Virus record (IMG/VR): IMGVR_UViG_3300008450_000169 | Location: 1 to 36,364 of that record | Strand: one strand, 5' to 3' | Origin: a virus | Length of the DNA stretch: 36,364 nucleotides | Shown: positions 1,989-25,356 of the stretch, piece by piece | Layout of the letters: each line of letters starts with the position of its first letter | Position numbering within the stretch: the stretch's first letter is position 1 | Made by a program: the position numbers and the translations under genes | Notes under the pieces: model-generated | Told to the model about the DNA's origin: nothing | Seen by the model: the letters and a program-made list of their open reading frames with translations, nothing else | Database searches by the model: none

Positions 1989-2777
1989 ATGACTGAAGAA
2001 GTCCAAGCCCTAGCGGAAGTAGACTCCGCGCCAACCACGGATGCGACGGCCGCACCTGAAGTTGCTGAAAGTACGCCGGAAGTCGCTGAGAATCAAACCG
2101 ACCAAGCTGAGAAGAAATACTCTCAAGCTGAAATTGACGCGATGATTGGCAAACGCCTTGCAAGAGAGCAACGTAAGTGGGAAAGAGAACAAGCACAGCG
2201 TCAGTCTGAACAACAGACGTTGAGAGCTGCGCCAACGGCCAGCGTTGACCAGTTTGAGTCTCCTGAAGCCTATGCGGAAGCATTGGCCCTTCAAAGAGCC
2301 GAAGAACTGATTGCCAAACGCGAAGCCGCCAAACAGCAATCGGCTGTTCTCGAAAGCTATCAAGAGCGTGAAGAAGCAGCTCGGGACAAGTACGACGATT
2401 TTCAACAAGTCGCCTACAACCCCCAGCTACCGATCACAAACGTGATGGCAGAAACGATCCAGTCTTCGGACATTGGACCTGAGTTAGCGTACTACCTCGG
2501 CTCCAACCCAAAAGAAGCAGATCGCATCTCACGCATGACGCCCTTAAGTCAGGCGAAGGAAATTGGAAAGATTGAGGCCAAACTGGCGTCAGACCCTCCA
2601 GTAAAACGAACAACGTCTGCACCTGCACCGATTTCACCTGTCACAGCGAGAGCCTCCGGCTCTCCGGCTCACGACACTACGGACCCACGGTCTATCAAGA
2701 CCATGACGGCCTCGCAGTGGATTGAAGCTGACCGCGCCCGACAGATGAAGAAGATGCAAGCACAGATGACCCGCTAA
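1989..2777 (+). CDS. Scaffolding protein
   Basis: A 262-residue, highly charged, helix-rich protein immediately upstream of the major coat gene, the standard position of podovirus and siphovirus scaffolds. The N-terminus (residues 1-40) is acidic and low-complexity. It is followed by a Lys/Arg/Glu/Gln coiled-coil region with KYSQAEIDAMIGKRLAREQR (about 43-62). The C-terminus is basic (MKKMQAQMTR), as expected for a scaffold tail that contacts coat protein. Scaffold acts inside procapsids to direct coat assembly and is released before or during DNA packaging. Sequence identity to P22 gp8 is not obvious; the call rests on composition and position. Confidence 0.85.
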   Translation: MTEEVQALAEVDSAPTTDATAAPEVAESTPEVAENQTDQAEKKYSQAEIDAMIGKRLAREQRKWEREQAQRQSEQQTLRAAPTASVDQFESPEAYAEALALQRAEELIAKREAAKQQSAVLESYQEREEAARDKYDDFQQVAYNPQLPITNVMAETIQSSDIGPELAYYLGSNPKEADRISRMTPLSQAKEIGKIEAKLASDPPVKRTTSAPAPISPVTARASGSPAHDTTDPRSIKTMTASQWIEADRARQMKKMQAQMTR

Positions 2778-2804
2778 AAACTTTGACTTTTAAAGGAATA
2801 CAAA

Positions 2805-4013
2805 ATGAGTAATTCGATTCTCACGATCGACATGATCACCCGCAAGGCTCTTGAAATTCTGGAGAACAACCTTGTGCTCACCCGCAACGTAAACCGTCAG
2901 TACGACGACAGCTTCGCTGTTGAAGGTGCCAAGATCGGTTCCACACTGCGTATTCGTTTGCCCGACCGCGCTCTGGTGACCGACGGTGCCGCCCTGCAAG
3001 TTCAGGACGACAACGAACAGTTCACCACTTTGACCGTTGCCAGCCAGAAGCACATTGGTGTTAACTTCACCTCTGCTGAACTGACCATGCAGTTGGACGA
3101 CTTTGCTGAACGTGTGCTCAAGCCACGTATTAGCCAGTTGGCCTCCAGCATTGACGCTGACGTTGCCAATGCGTACAAAACCATCGGCAACACTGTCGGT
3201 ACACCTGGCACCACTCCTTCGACTTCTTTGGTGCTGTTGCAAGCCCAGCAGAAGCTGAACGAGAACGCTGCCGTGATGAACCCACGTTATGCCACCGTCA
3301 ACCCCGCCGCTAACGCTGGTTTGGTTGAAGGCATGAAAGGTCTGTTCAACCCTACCGACACCATCAGCAAGCAGTTTAAGAACGGCATGATGGGCACTGG
3401 CGTGTTGGGCTTTGACGAGATCAACATGTCTCAGTCGATCAAGCAACACACCACTGGTTCGCGTGACGCATCTGCATCTACCACAGTCGGCGCTACCGTG
3501 ACTTCTGAAGGTGCTTCTACTGTAACCTTGTCTCAAGGTTCTGTGACTACCACCCTCAAGGCCGGTGATGTGTTTACCATTGCAGCTTGCTTTGCTGTGA
3601 ACCCACAAACCCGTGAAACCACTGGTTCGTTGTTCCAGTTTGTGGCTTTGGCTGATGCAACCGCTGTGGCTGGCACTTGGACTGTGACCGTGGCTCCCAT
3701 GTACTCCGCTGCTCACGCACTGGCTACCATGACCGCTTTGCCAGTATCTAGCGCTGTTGTAACCTTTGTTGGCGCGGCTTCTACTGCTTACGCTCAGAAC
3801 TTGGTGTACCACAAGGATGCCATCACCTTTGCAACAGCCGACTTGCTGTTGCCACAAGGCGTTGACATGGCTGCCCGTGCCGTCCACAACGGTATCAGCT
3901 TGCGCGTTGTTCGTCAGTACGACATCAACAACGATCGCTTGCCTTGCCGTATTGACGTTTTGTATGGCTTCAGCACCATCCGTCCACAAATGGCCTGCCG
4001 CATCTGGGGCTAA
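2805..4013 (+). CDS. Major capsid protein, P22 coat family
   Basis: A 402-residue protein with the N-terminal pattern of the P22 gp5 coat family: initial helix MSNSILTIDMITRKALEILE, then NLVLTRNVNRQYDD, then IGSTLRIRLP. P22 coat is 430 residues, so the length fits an HK97-fold coat with an inserted domain. Residues of about 215-330 form a Thr/Val/Ala-rich beta stretch that probably corresponds to the P22 insertion (I) domain. The ATG follows AAAGGAATACAAA. It lies downstream of scaffold and is followed by a hairpin terminator at 4020-4040, consistent with very high expression. Confidence 0.93.
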   Translation: MSNSILTIDMITRKALEILENNLVLTRNVNRQYDDSFAVEGAKIGSTLRIRLPDRALVTDGAALQVQDDNEQFTTLTVASQKHIGVNFTSAELTMQLDDFAERVLKPRISQLASSIDADVANAYKTIGNTVGTPGTTPSTSLVLLQAQQKLNENAAVMNPRYATVNPAANAGLVEGMKGLFNPTDTISKQFKNGMMGTGVLGFDEINMSQSIKQHTTGSRDASASTTVGATVTSEGASTVTLSQGSVTTTLKAGDVFTIAACFAVNPQTRETTGSLFQFVALADATAVAGTWTVTVAPMYSAAHALATMTALPVSSAVVTFVGAASTAYAQNLVYHKDAITFATADLLLPQGVDMAARAVHNGISLRVVRQYDINNDRLPCRIDVLYGFSTIRPQMACRIWG

Positions 4014-22522: not shown

Positions 22523-22561
22523 CCTTTTCTGATGCCCAGTGACAGTGGGCATTGGAAAAGG
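22523..22561 (+). promoter_or_regulatory. Hairpin covering the DNA polymerase ribosome binding site
   Basis: CCTTTTC (22523-22529) pairs with GAAAAGG (22555-22561), and ATGCCCA pairs with TGGGCAT inside it, leaving a small TG/TG internal loop. The 3' strand contains most of the AAGGA that precedes the polymerase ATG at 22570. The structure would hide the site unless opened by ribosomes or a protein, so translational control of polymerase is likely (inference). Confidence 0.6.
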
Positions 22562-22569
22562 AACCGACT

Positions 22570-25356
22570 ATGCTTTGGCTTGACTTTGAGACAAGATCGC
22601 GCTGTGACCTGAAGGCCAAGGGCGTGTACAACTACGCCCAAGACATGAGCACCGAAGTGCTGTGCATGTCCTACGCCTTCGACGACGGTGAGGTCGTGAC
22701 GTGGTTGCCGGGTCAGCCCCTGCCTGACTTTACGGGCCAGACGATCTACGCCCACAACGCCGCTTTCGAGCGGTTAATTTTTTGGTATGTTCTCCAGCAG
22801 AACTACCCGTTGGAGCAGTTTGTATGCACGGCAGCGCAGGCCCGCGCCAACTGTGCGCCTGGCTCACTGGAAGACGTGGGCCGCTTTGCTGGCGCTGACA
22901 TGCGTAAGGACCACCGGGGCAGCCAACTGATCCGGCTGTTGTCCATCCCACAGGCTAACGGCCAGTTCCGTGAAGACGCCGCCCTGATGGCCGAGATGGT
23001 GGCCTACTGTGAGATGGACGTCAAAGCCATGCGGGCCGTCAGCAAAGCCCTGCGGCCACTGTCTGAGGACGAGCTGGCCGATTACCACACCAACGAGCGC
23101 ATCAACGACCGTGGCGTGCTGGTGGATGTGCCGCTGTGCCGTGCTGCGGTGCAATACTCAGCAGACGAAACCGTCGAGATTCAGCAGATCGTGTCCGAGG
23201 TGACCGAGGGCGTCATCACCAGCGTCAGGTCGCCCAAGATGCGCGAGTGGGTGCTGGAGCGTGTCGGGCCAGAGGCCAAGAAGCTGATGTGGAACGGTGA
23301 GAAGTATTCGATTGACAAGACTGTGCGGGCTAACTTGCTTGCGATGGAAGACCCTGATGAGATACCGCCCCATGTTGCAGACGTTATTCAATGCGCGGAC
23401 GACCTCTGGGCGTCTTCGGTTGCGAAGTTCAACCGCTTGTCAAACCTGGCCGATGAGGAAGATCACCGAGTCCGAGGCGCTTTTGTTTTTGCTGGAGGGG
23501 CTGCCACTGGACGAGCGTCGAGCTATGGCGCACAGGTTCACAACTTTACCCGCAAATGCGCCAAAGAGCCTGATGAAGTACGCCACGCTATGGTGCGTGG
23601 ACACAACATCACACCAAGATTTGGTAAGCGCATTACAGATGTCCTTAAAGGGATGCTCCGGCCTGCGCTGATCGCCAAGCCCGGCCACGTCCTGATCGCC
23701 TACGACTGGTCGGCCATTGAGGGCCGCGTGCACCCGTGGCTGTCCAACTGCCCGGCGGGTGAGGCCAAGCTGGACGTGTTCCGCTCGGGCCTTGACCCGT
23801 ACAAGGTCAACGCAGCCGCCACCTTTCGCGTGCCCTACGAAGACGTAGCCGGTGACCAGCGTCAGGTGGGCAAGGTGCAAGAGCTGGCCTGTCTTGGCCC
23901 AGAAACCCAAGTGTTGACGCATAACGGGGTCAAGGCTATACTGGAGGTTCAACTAACAGACCAGCTATGGGACGGTGAACAATGGGTAAACCATCAAGGT
24001 GTGATCAGCAGGGGGCATCGGCAGACTATCAACGTGTGCGGAATGGAAGTAACGTCGGATCATTTGATCAAAACGCAGCAAACTTGGGCGCAGGCGCAGC
24101 AACTCGTTTTAAACAAACAGTTGATGACCCAAGCCTTGGCGACCGGTTCGGCCAACTTACCGTTTTGGGCACCGAGCGCGTTAAACAAGGTGCGGCCTAC
24201 GCCAGATACGTCCGTGTTCAATGCGCGTGCGGTGCTGAACCGCATTTGGTCTATCTTCACAATTTGCGCAAAGGCGCGTCAACGCGGTGCAATGTCTGCG
24301 CGAAAAAGTCCGCTGGATTTTGGCGCAAAGACTTTTACAAATATGCCGATGCCTGTCCTGATGACGGCCACCGACGGCGCTTGCTCAACCGGCTATCTGC
24401 TTGCAAAAACAGATGCCACAACCCCAAAGATCGAAACTATCCAAACTATGGCGGCAGGGGAATTCATTTATATGAATCCTGGCGCACTGACAAAGCCGCG
24501 TTTCTTCGGTACGTGCTCACGCTTGACGGGTGGGATCAGCCGCATTTGGAGTTGGATCGCATTGATGTCAACAAAGGTTACGAGCCGAATAATTTGCGGT
24601 TTGTTACGCGGCAAGTTAACCGCGATAACCAGCGTAAAGTTCAAGACATGCAGCGATACATCCTTGAACTTGAGGCCCGTGTACGACATCTTGAACAGCG
24701 GCCCGCGCAACCAATTCACGGTGCTAACTAACGAAGGTGCGTTGATTGTTCACAACTGCGGTTTTCTCGGCGGCGTTGGCTCATTTGAAACTTTTGGCCG
24801 TGCATACGGGTTAAAAATTACTGCGCAAGAAGCGCAGCGGGCCGTGGACGGCTGGCGCAGGGCCAACCCTTGGGCGCAAGACCACGGGCGGCGCTTAGAA
24901 GACGCCTACCTTCGGGCCATGAGAAACAAAGGGCATGAATTTAAAGCAGGACGTGTTGCGTACTTGTTCGACGGTCGGACCCTCTGGTATGCTTTACCCT
25001 CTGGCCGGGTGCTGTGCTATCCCAACGCCAAATTTGACGACGAAGGCAACGTGACGTATACCAAAGCAGCCTGGAAGCCCGCCGCTGATGCCAAGGAGTG
25101 GCCCCGCGCCCGCCTGTGGCGTGGCTTGGCTTGCGAGAACGTCACGCAGGCCGCTGCGCACGACATTCTGCGCCATTCCCTGCGCCAGCTTGATGGCGTT
25201 GTCCTACACGTCCACGACGAAATTGTTGTCGAGTGCCCGGCCCACGAGGCCGATGCAGTCGCTGCCCACATGCACCAGATCATGTGCACCCCGCCCGCTT
25301 GGGCCACCGGTCTGCCTTTGGCCGCAGAAGGTGTGACCACCACCCGATACTCATAA
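22570..25356 (+). CDS. Family A DNA polymerase (3'-5' exonuclease + polymerase), interrupted by an intein
   Basis: The 928-residue precursor starts at ATG 22570, seven bases after AAGGA. Exonuclease motifs: LDFET (Asp 5, Glu 7), HNAAFE (Asn 63, Glu 67), YCEMD (Asp 150). Polymerase motif A is YDWSAIEGR (Asp 379). Motif B begins RQVGKVQELA (Lys 435) and is interrupted after Ala 440. Motif C is HVHDE (Asp 883, Glu 884). The intein occupies residues 441-729; splicing would give a 639-residue enzyme with ELA joined to CGFLGGVGSF, matching the motif-B helix of phage polymerases. The intein sits in the active site, so polymerase activity should need splicing. A -1 frame HNH gene overlaps the intein. 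This enzyme should replicate the phage genome together with the downstream primase-helicase. Confidence 0.93.
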   Translation: MLWLDFETRSRCDLKAKGVYNYAQDMSTEVLCMSYAFDDGEVVTWLPGQPLPDFTGQTIYAHNAAFERLIFWYVLQQNYPLEQFVCTAAQARANCAPGSLEDVGRFAGADMRKDHRGSQLIRLLSIPQANGQFREDAALMAEMVAYCEMDVKAMRAVSKALRPLSEDELADYHTNERINDRGVLVDVPLCRAAVQYSADETVEIQQIVSEVTEGVITSVRSPKMREWVLERVGPEAKKLMWNGEKYSIDKTVRANLLAMEDPDEIPPHVADVIQCADDLWASSVAKFNRLSNLADEEDHRVRGAFVFAGGAATGRASSYGAQVHNFTRKCAKEPDEVRHAMVRGHNITPRFGKRITDVLKGMLRPALIAKPGHVLIAYDWSAIEGRVHPWLSNCPAGEAKLDVFRSGLDPYKVNAAATFRVPYEDVAGDQRQVGKVQELACLGPETQVLTHNGVKAILEVQLTDQLWDGEQWVNHQGVISRGHRQTINVCGMEVTSDHLIKTQQTWAQAQQLVLNKQLMTQALATGSANLPFWAPSALNKVRPTPDTSVFNARAVLNRIWSIFTICAKARQRGAMSARKSPLDFGAKTFTNMPMPVLMTATDGACSTGYLLAKTDATTPKIETIQTMAAGEFIYMNPGALTKPRFFGTCSRLTGGISRIWSWIALMSTKVTSRIICGLLRGKLTAITSVKFKTCSDTSLNLRPVYDILNSGPRNQFTVLTNEGALIVHNCGFLGGVGSFETFGRAYGLKITAQEAQRAVDGWRRANPWAQDHGRRLEDAYLRAMRNKGHEFKAGRVAYLFDGRTLWYALPSGRVLCYPNAKFDDEGNVTYTKAAWKPAADAKEWPRARLWRGLACENVTQAAAHDILRHSLRQLDGVVLHVHDEIVVECPAHEADAVAAHMHQIMCTPPAWATGLPLAAEGVTTTRYS
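23982..24731 (+). CDS. HNH homing endonuclease nested in the intein, -1 frame
   Basis: An open frame of 249 codons, one base behind the polymerase frame. HNH homology starts near codon 50: LGDRFGQLTVLG, then a zinc-ribbon-like region (CACG and CNVC). The HNH core follows: KNRCHNPKDRNYPNYGGRGI, YESW, LELDRIDVNKGYEPNNLRFV and NRDNQ. These match phage HNH homing enzymes, which nick DNA and spread their own gene. The first 45 or so codons overlap the N-terminal splicing half and look non-native, so the true entry may be frameshifting at 24108-24114 rather than the ATG at 23982, whose ribosome binding site is weak. The C-terminus is a helix that overlaps intein block F in the other frame. Confidence 0.85.
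   Translation: MGKPSRCDQQGASADYQRVRNGSNVGSFDQNAANLGAGAATRFKQTVDDPSLGDRFGQLTVLGTERVKQGAAYARYVRVQCACGAEPHLVYLHNLRKGASTRCNVCAKKSAGFWRKDFYKYADACPDDGHRRRLLNRLSACKNRCHNPKDRNYPNYGGRGIHLYESWRTDKAAFLRYVLTLDGWDQPHLELDRIDVNKGYEPNNLRFVTRQVNRDNQRKVQDMQRYILELEARVRHLEQRPAQPIHGAN
24108..24114 (+). promoter_or_regulatory. Candidate -1 ribosomal frameshift site T TTA AAC
   Basis: In the polymerase frame the codons read GTT TTA AAC AAA, so the heptamer TTTAAAC is in the exact X XXY YYZ phase. A -1 slip would continue as CAA ACA GTT GAT GAC in the HNH frame, giving QTVDD then PSLGDRFGQLTV, the start of HNH homology. A possible stem (AAG..TTGGC, 24131-24140, with GCCAA-CTT, 24151-24158) lies 16 bases downstream, farther than the usual 5-9. 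Activity is inferred, not shown. Confidence 0.6.

What the first reader, a model, noticed from the sequence alone, without database searches (positions are those of the whole stretch)
23890..24756. Intein whose homing endonuclease is encoded in the -1 frame of the same DNA
The polymerase frame carries a complete splicing set (Cys at 23890, block B EVTSDHLI, block F PVYDILNSGP, terminal His-Asn before Cys at 24757), yet the HNH endonuclease is read one base back (23982-24731). The usual intein carries its endonuclease in-frame between the splicing halves. Here the splicing frame is stop-free through roughly 185-200 codons of HNH shadow; with uniform codons the chance of that is about (61/64)^200, under 1 in 10,000. 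The overlap therefore looks maintained: any stop in the shadow frame would abolish the polymerase. I know of no described intein family with this arrangement.
Basis: partly seen in the sequence, partly recalled or inferred. Interest (0 to 1): 0.93.

Follow-up and report, generated by a model that had tools for sequence, protein, structure and literature searches.

The report
Inteins hiding an out-of-frame homing endonuclease
A phage DNA polymerase gene carries a self-splicing insert whose DNA is read in two overlapping frames, one giving the splicing protein and the other a separate DNA-cutting enzyme, and the same trick recurs in hundreds of phages, has probably arisen more than once, and sometimes seems to decay into inteins split over two genes.

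Summary
Confirmed and extended. The polymerase ORF (22552-25356) contains a complete 289-codon intein (23890-24756); an HNH endonuclease ORF (23982-24731) lies in its -1 frame. In 42 homologous viral loci and six fetched cultured-phage loci (three of them jerseyviruses of Salmonella) the splicing frame is stop-free across the HNH. Protein-preserving codon resampling predicts 3-16 stops; 68 of 68 distinct loci have none, while 38 free-standing HNH homologues have the expected number (7.2 against 7.1). Substitutions show the middle is selected only in the HNH frame, the ends mainly in the intein frame; predicted folds of the two proteins occupy complementary stretches. Two further HNH groups (streptococcal prophages; Caulobacter RW/APSE) use the +1 frame, and in the tree at least one is a separate invasion; one polymerase carries both kinds. 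No in-frame HNH was found. Deletion derivatives (mini-inteins) and two probable split inteins nested inside the dual-coded groups suggest a homing cycle and a route to split inteins. Splicing, cutting and homing are inferred, not shown. [quoted passage not shown] One preprint on non-canonical phage inteins could not be read.

The parts
22552..23889 (+). N-extein: DNA polymerase A, up to motif B ('RQVGKVQELA')
23890..24756 (+). Intein in the polymerase frame, 289 codons, Cys1 ... His-Asn
   Evidence: Hint fold Z up to 14.8
23890..24174 (+). Hint N-terminal half (intein residues 1-95, predicted pLDDT about 95 for residues 1-90)
24187..24663 (+). Shadow stretch of the intein frame (residues 100-258): predicted disordered, little residue-level selection, but stop-free
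24667..24756 (+). Hint C-terminal half (residues 260-289, blocks F and G, ends HN)
23982..24731 (+). HNH endonuclease ORF in the -1 frame, 249 aa: CxC...CxxC region, HNH core, C-terminal helix
23974..23978 (+). GGTGA, a possible ribosome-binding site 3 nt before the HNH ATG; the TGA at 23976-23978 closes the HNH frame upstream
24757..25356 (+). C-extein: rest of polymerase A, beginning with Cys+1 (Leu in most empty alleles)

Best explanation
It is a mobile intein whose two functions are encoded in overlapping frames. Ribosomes reading the polymerase frame make polymerase with a 289-residue insert; the two ends fold into a Hint splicing domain that excises itself together with a roughly 160-residue unstructured shadow peptide, giving intact polymerase. 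Separate initiation at the conserved ATG/GTG inside the Hint coding sequence makes an HNH endonuclease from the -1 frame. The endonuclease would cut intein-less polymerase genes of co-infecting phages at the insertion site in motif B and be copied in by repair (homing). Shown here by sequence: both ORFs, conserved splicing residues, selection on the two frames in different stretches, empty sites, deletion derivatives. Inferred: splicing, HNH translation, cleavage and homing.
For: 42/42 HNH relatives keep the splicing frame open with Hint motifs, at more than one polymerase site, while free HNH homologues carry stops. A search by the Hint half alone gives 75/80 loci with an out-of-frame HNH, 3 mini-inteins, 1 with stops (split), 1 truncated, 0 in-frame. 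Codon resampling: 0 stops in 68/68 loci against 3-16 expected; controls match expectation. Substitution rates: in the middle, changes silent for HNH but missense for the intein run at 2.6-2.7 times the mean, the converse at 0.46-0.57; in class A the order reverses at the Hint ends. HNH start codon kept in 76/77, with third base A in all 17 Ser/Ala codons before it. Models: intein frame confident at about 1-95 and 260-289 only, HNH frame confident at about 50-235; intein model matches solved inteins, Z up to 14.8. 53 of 80 intein-less relatives align without gap over the joined site.
Against: No protein data: neither splicing nor HNH expression is shown. A ribosome-binding motif is present upstream in only 38 of 77 class A loci. 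The structural match of the HNH core to solved HNH nucleases is weak (PacI, Z 5.7 over 86 residues); the identification rests on PHROG profiles. The 'DRID' motif has Arg where classical HNH enzymes have the first His (from general knowledge).
Confidence: 0.9

Rival explanations
1. Sequencing or assembly error: paired indels shift a normal in-frame HNH out of frame.
For: Single contig; one old jerseyvirus record (SS3e, L142) does show frame breaks here.
Against: Same phase in 42 viral loci and in cultured phages such as fSE4S, VSe103, Ent2, EBPR siphovirus 2, Pseudomonas MR14; no in-frame relative among 80.
Confidence: 0.01
2. A recently inserted HNH ORF that leaves the splicing frame open by chance.
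For: For the window alone P=0.002, not negligible in a large scan.
Against: 68 of 68 distinct loci stop-free, diverged to about 42% protein identity in class A, while 38 free homologues show the expected 7.2 stops.
Confidence: 0.01
3. Only the splicing frame matters; the HNH ORF is a dead relic that is not translated.
For: No expression data; mini-inteins with HNH remnants exist.
Against: HNH missense changes are strongly avoided in the middle (rate 0.46-0.57 against 2.6-2.7) and the HNH start codon is conserved beyond what the intein needs.
Confidence: 0.04
4. The HNH is made by programmed ribosomal frameshifting as a fusion to the Hint N half rather than from its own start.
For: -1 is a common slip direction; half of class A loci lack a clear ribosome-binding motif.
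Against: Start codon conserved in 76/77; the HNH frame is closed by a stop between the intein start and the start codon in 45 of 49 class A loci; +1-phase groups would need a different slip; Javan-type loci have AGAGGTGATATCTTATG.
Confidence: 0.06
5. The middle of the intein frame is itself a second functional domain, so both frames encode selected protein throughout.
For: Frame kept open; residues G198 and G215 are nearly invariant in the intein alignment.
Against: Missense changes in the intein frame are nearly free in the middle (SN 2.6 against SS 4.3 in class A, 2.7 against 2.9 in class B); the stretch is predicted disordered and missing in mini-inteins.
Confidence: 0.05
6. It is a group I intron or other RNA-spliced element.
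For: HNH ORFs are common in phage introns.
Against: No Rfam family in the window; complete conserved Hint protein motifs and frame.
Confidence: 0.01

Closest known systems
[quoted passage not shown]
   Same: HNH in another frame of an in-frame, stop-free insertion; patchy distribution suggesting homing
   Different: No intein motifs or fold; authors think the insert stays in the protein; methylase, not polymerase
Canonical endonuclease-bearing inteins (PI-SceI, PI-MtuI type)
   Same: Hint splicing domain with a homing endonuclease between its halves, in a conserved site of a replication protein
   Different: There the endonuclease is in frame and part of the excised protein; here it is a separate protein from another frame
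Split inteins with an endonuclease gene in the break ('fractured genes', Dassa et al. 2009; from memory)
   Same: Endonuclease encoded between intein halves as its own ORF; two relatives here (L152, L300) have this form
   Different: In the window and nearly all relatives the host gene is not broken: the splicing frame runs through the endonuclease gene
Group I introns with an HNH ORF
   Same: Endonuclease ORF nested in a self-splicing element with its own start
   Different: Splicing here is at protein level, so the overlapping frame must stay open
Jerseyvirus 'intein-containing DNA polymerase precursor' (e.g. vB_SenS-Ent2 gp37)
   Same: Same arrangement; intein already annotated as 'encoding splicing domains'
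   Different: The -1-frame HNH is not annotated there, unlike the LAGLIDADG endonuclease noted for the helicase intein of the same phage

Membership tests
Intein (Hint protein-splicing element) | Cys/Ser/Thr1, block B with TxxH, C-terminal (H)N followed by Cys/Ser/Thr | tested here: met
   C1, T55, H58, H288, N289 invariant across 37 relatives; Cys+1
Intein (Hint protein-splicing element) | Hint fold | tested here: met
   AF2 pLDDT about 95 at both ends; PDB inteins Z up to 14.8, about 113 residues; profile hits to PI-MtuI, NEQ068
Intein (Hint protein-splicing element) | Intein-less alleles of the host gene, junction exact | tested here: met
   53/80 relatives align ungapped across the joined site
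Intein (Hint protein-splicing element) | Protein splicing activity | not testable with these tools
   needs expression
HNH homing endonuclease | HNH sequence family | tested here: met
   phrog_374 4e-34, phrog_3377 8e-22; weak match to I-HmuI 1u3e at the right place (E=0.1)
HNH homing endonuclease | beta-beta-alpha metal fold | tested here: inconclusive
   PacI Z 5.7 over 86 residues only
HNH homing endonuclease | Cuts intein-less allele and promotes copying | not testable with these tools
   needs enzyme assay and co-infection
Canonical large intein | Endonuclease in frame with the splicing halves | tested here: not met
   -1 frame here; 0 of 80 Hint-found relatives in frame
ShiLan-type out-of-frame HNH insertion | Insertion lacks self-splicing domains | tested here: not met
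   full Hint domain present
Group I intron | Catalytic intron RNA | tested here: not met
   no Rfam match in the window at gathering score

The most novel reading that the evidence does not exclude
Out-of-frame overprinting is the rule for this group of phage HNH inteins: endonuclease ORFs invaded Hint elements two or three separate times, in either phase, and the resulting dual-coded inteins are a natural source of split inteins, because a stop in the shadow frame is survivable once the C-terminal half restarts translation next to the endonuclease gene.
Probability: 0.55. Interest if true: 0.88.

Novelty: new variant of a known kind. Interest (0 to 1): 0.8.

Why it matters
Inteins are usually described as carrying their endonuclease in frame or not at all; here is a large group that does neither, present in well over a hundred sequenced phages where the endonuclease was overlooked. 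It explains why some 'endonuclease-free' inteins are about 290 residues long, gives a naturally replicated case of overlapping genes in which one frame is largely free filler that is spliced away, and makes the open question of how split inteins arise testable by comparison and by experiment.

Tried and rejected
Pfam and NCBIfam barely detect either protein. Rfam: nothing in the window. L001 was a chance match in an unrelated long ORF. Gorbalenya 1998 and the Gosselin 2025 preprint are not held. Of ten paper searches only the ShiLan paper and a phage announcement with the same methylase element (PMC12613952) concerned an out-of-frame HNH. The HNH model's structural match list is dominated by CarD-like barrels covering residues 44-102, not the catalytic core.

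Full report
What is there. The window is a 36,364-base virus record. Its polymerase ORF, 22552-25356 on the plus strand, is open throughout. Residues 447-735 of that ORF are an intein: CLGPETQVLT...LWDGEQWV...EVTSDHLI...PVYDILNSGPRNQFTVLTNEGALIVHN, followed by Cys. Inside it, in the -1 frame, lies a 249-aa ORF (23982-24731) with a GQLTV...CxCG...CxxC region and the core YGGRGI...W...LDRID...YEPNNLRFVT...N; PHROG profiles call it an HNH endonuclease at E=4e-34. The HNH frame is closed by a TGA two codons before the ATG, so the ORF needs its own start. The insert is absent from most relatives: 80 viral loci matched the uninterrupted polymerase, 53 of them align without a gap across the joined flanks. 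Among the empty alleles in which the motif was found, residue +1 is Leu in 64 and Cys in 14; in this allele it is Cys.

Relatives. A search with the HNH protein found 42 homologues at 81-42% identity, nearly all full length. In every one the splicing frame is free of stops across the HNH ORF and carries the Hint motifs; Cys1 and terminal HN/C are present in those complete at both ends. Five more distant HNH hits have no Hint and carry 8-14 stops in that frame. The same -1 arrangement occurs in cultured phages: three jerseyviruses of Salmonella fetched here (fSE4S, VSe103, Ent2), EBPR siphovirus 2 (uncultured record), Vibrio 97.13 and Pseudomonas MR14. In the phage collection 166 records match at least 80% of the HNH query, most of the top ones Salmonella phages. 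In Ent2 the depositors marked the intein as 'encoding splicing domains' but no endonuclease.

A second phase. Streptococcus phages Javan255 and Javan113, phage APSE-7 and Caulobacter phage RW have a homologous HNH in the +1 frame of a polymerase intein. Two more scans gave further viral loci of this class with an open intein frame (L144-L151, L153, L154, L157-L160, L168, L175, L195, L214-L224), plus one deletion derivative, L225. Across the loci the rule is nearly strict: where an HNH is flanked by Hint halves it is out of frame and the Hint frame is open; where there is no Hint, both other frames have stops in nearly every case (L213, a 33-codon stretch, is the exception). The two breaches are L142 (SS3e, frame breaks in an old record) and L152 (below). 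A search by the Hint N half only (451 relatives, best 80 kept) gave 75 loci with an out-of-frame HNH and an open frame, three mini-inteins, one locus with stops (L300), one truncated contig, and no in-frame HNH. One polymerase, L283, carries two such inteins at two sites, one with a -1 and one with a +1 HNH, in a single 1261-codon ORF.

Is the open frame selected? For each distinct locus I kept the HNH protein and resampled its synonymous codons with the gene's own usage. Dual loci: expected about 3-16 stops in the splicing frame, observed none in 68 of 68 (38 of class A, 30 of class B, split locus L152 set aside). Free-standing homologues (38): observed mean 7.24, expected 7.15.

Which residues are selected? 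In 17 gapless class A pairs and 7 class B pairs I classed each substitution by its effect in both frames, relative to opportunity. Middle: silent in HNH and missense in the intein 2.61 (A) and 2.70 (B); missense in HNH and silent in the intein 0.57 and 0.46. So the HNH is under purifying selection there and the intein-frame residues are nearly free. At the Hint ends the order reverses in class A (N overlap 1.15 against 1.76; C end 0.89 against 2.11) and in the small class B N overlap (0.95 against 2.27), but not clearly at the class B C end (1.78 against 1.51). Predicted structures mirror this: intein frame pLDDT about 95 at residues 1-90 and 260-289 and about 33 at 100-258; HNH frame below 50 at 1-28 and about 90 from 50 to 235. 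The intein model matches solved inteins (Mtu RecA 3ifj Z 14.8, rmsd 2.3, 113 residues). The HNH core matches PacI weakly (Z 5.7, rmsd 3.1, 86 residues).

How the HNH is made. In class A the start codon sits in the conserved LWDGxxWV codons; 76 of 77 distinct loci keep ATG, GTG or TTG there, and all 17 Ser or Ala codons preceding Trp end in A, which the intein does not need. The HNH frame has a stop between the intein start and this codon in 45 of 49 class A loci. A Shine-Dalgarno-like motif is present in 38 of 77; in the window it is GGTGA at 23974-23978. In Javan-type loci the sequence AGAGGTGATATCTTATG is a good initiation site. Independent initiation is therefore more likely than frameshifting, but it is inferred.

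Decay products. L225 has lost most of the HNH by a deletion that keeps the intein frame; L293, L294 and L304 are 137-146-residue mini-inteins, and L293 and L294 still show HNH remnants in the other frame; L140 is a 140-residue mini-intein at the Javan site. L300 (class A) has a 96-residue N half ending in a stop, further stops in the middle, and a C half starting at an ATG at 3354 preceded by AAAGGACC; its polymerase C part then runs on in frame. L152 (class B) has its N half closed at 2435, the HNH ORF, then a C half whose ATG overlaps the HNH stop (ATGA at 3055). Both look like split inteins with the endonuclease gene in the break. In a tree of HNH cores L300 lies inside class A next to L131 and L152 inside class B next to L153, which suggests dual-coded ancestors; node support there is uneven.

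Origins. In the same tree class A, the Javan group and the RW/APSE group are separate; the RW/APSE group falls on the side of the free HNH genes and the other two lie together on the far side of a midpoint root. With opposite phases, this suggests at least two and perhaps three independent invasions of Hint elements by HNH ORFs.

Prior knowledge. The closest published case I could read is the ShiLan domain (PMC11855218): an out-of-frame HNH in an in-frame, stop-free insertion of a phage methylase, without intein features. That paper cites Gosselin et al. 2025 (bioRxiv 10.1101/2025.01.02.630785, 'non-canonical architecture') and Gorbalenya 1998 ('Non-canonical inteins') for overlapping frames; neither is held, so earlier notice of some such inteins cannot be excluded. 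I therefore rate this a new variant of a known kind.

Noticed in passing
L300:2544-3455: Class A relative with several stops in the splicing frame; N half ends after 96 residues, C half has its own ATG (3354) and AAAGGACC upstream: a probable natural split intein with the HNH gene in the break.
   Followed up: partly
L152:2169-3357: Class B relative split into three ORFs in three frames; the C half's ATG overlaps the HNH stop codon (ATGA at 3055): a second probable split intein.
   Followed up: partly
L283:1621-5406: One polymerase ORF of 1261 codons with two dual-coded inteins, one with a -1 HNH and one with a +1 HNH.
   Followed up: yes
L225:2347-2850; L293:659-1081; L294:1311-1721; L304:3001-3438; L140:2501-2920: Mini-inteins, several with HNH-frame remnants, that look like deletion derivatives of dual-coded inteins.
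   Followed up: partly
L142 (Salmonella phage SS3e, AY730274) 2186-3100: Frame breaks in the polymerase intein region of this old record put the Hint N half into the HNH frame; sequencing error or real decay.
   Followed up: no
L135 (vB_SenS-Ent2) 2349-3245 and 4799 onward: Record annotates the polymerase intein as splicing domains only, but a LAGLIDADG endonuclease in the neighbouring helicase intein: the polymerase one was probably missed because it is out of frame.
   Followed up: yes
window 24757-24759; L002-L081: Among empty polymerase alleles with the motif, 64 have Leu and 14 have Cys at the +1 position; intein alleles have Cys (one Ser seen): possibly the nucleophile came in with the insert by co-conversion.
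   Followed up: partly
L143 (Escherichia phage PGN829.1) 684-4106: A DNA polymerase gene annotated in two pieces with a related free HNH ORF between them and no Hint halves detected: perhaps an intron or a broken gene.
   Followed up: no
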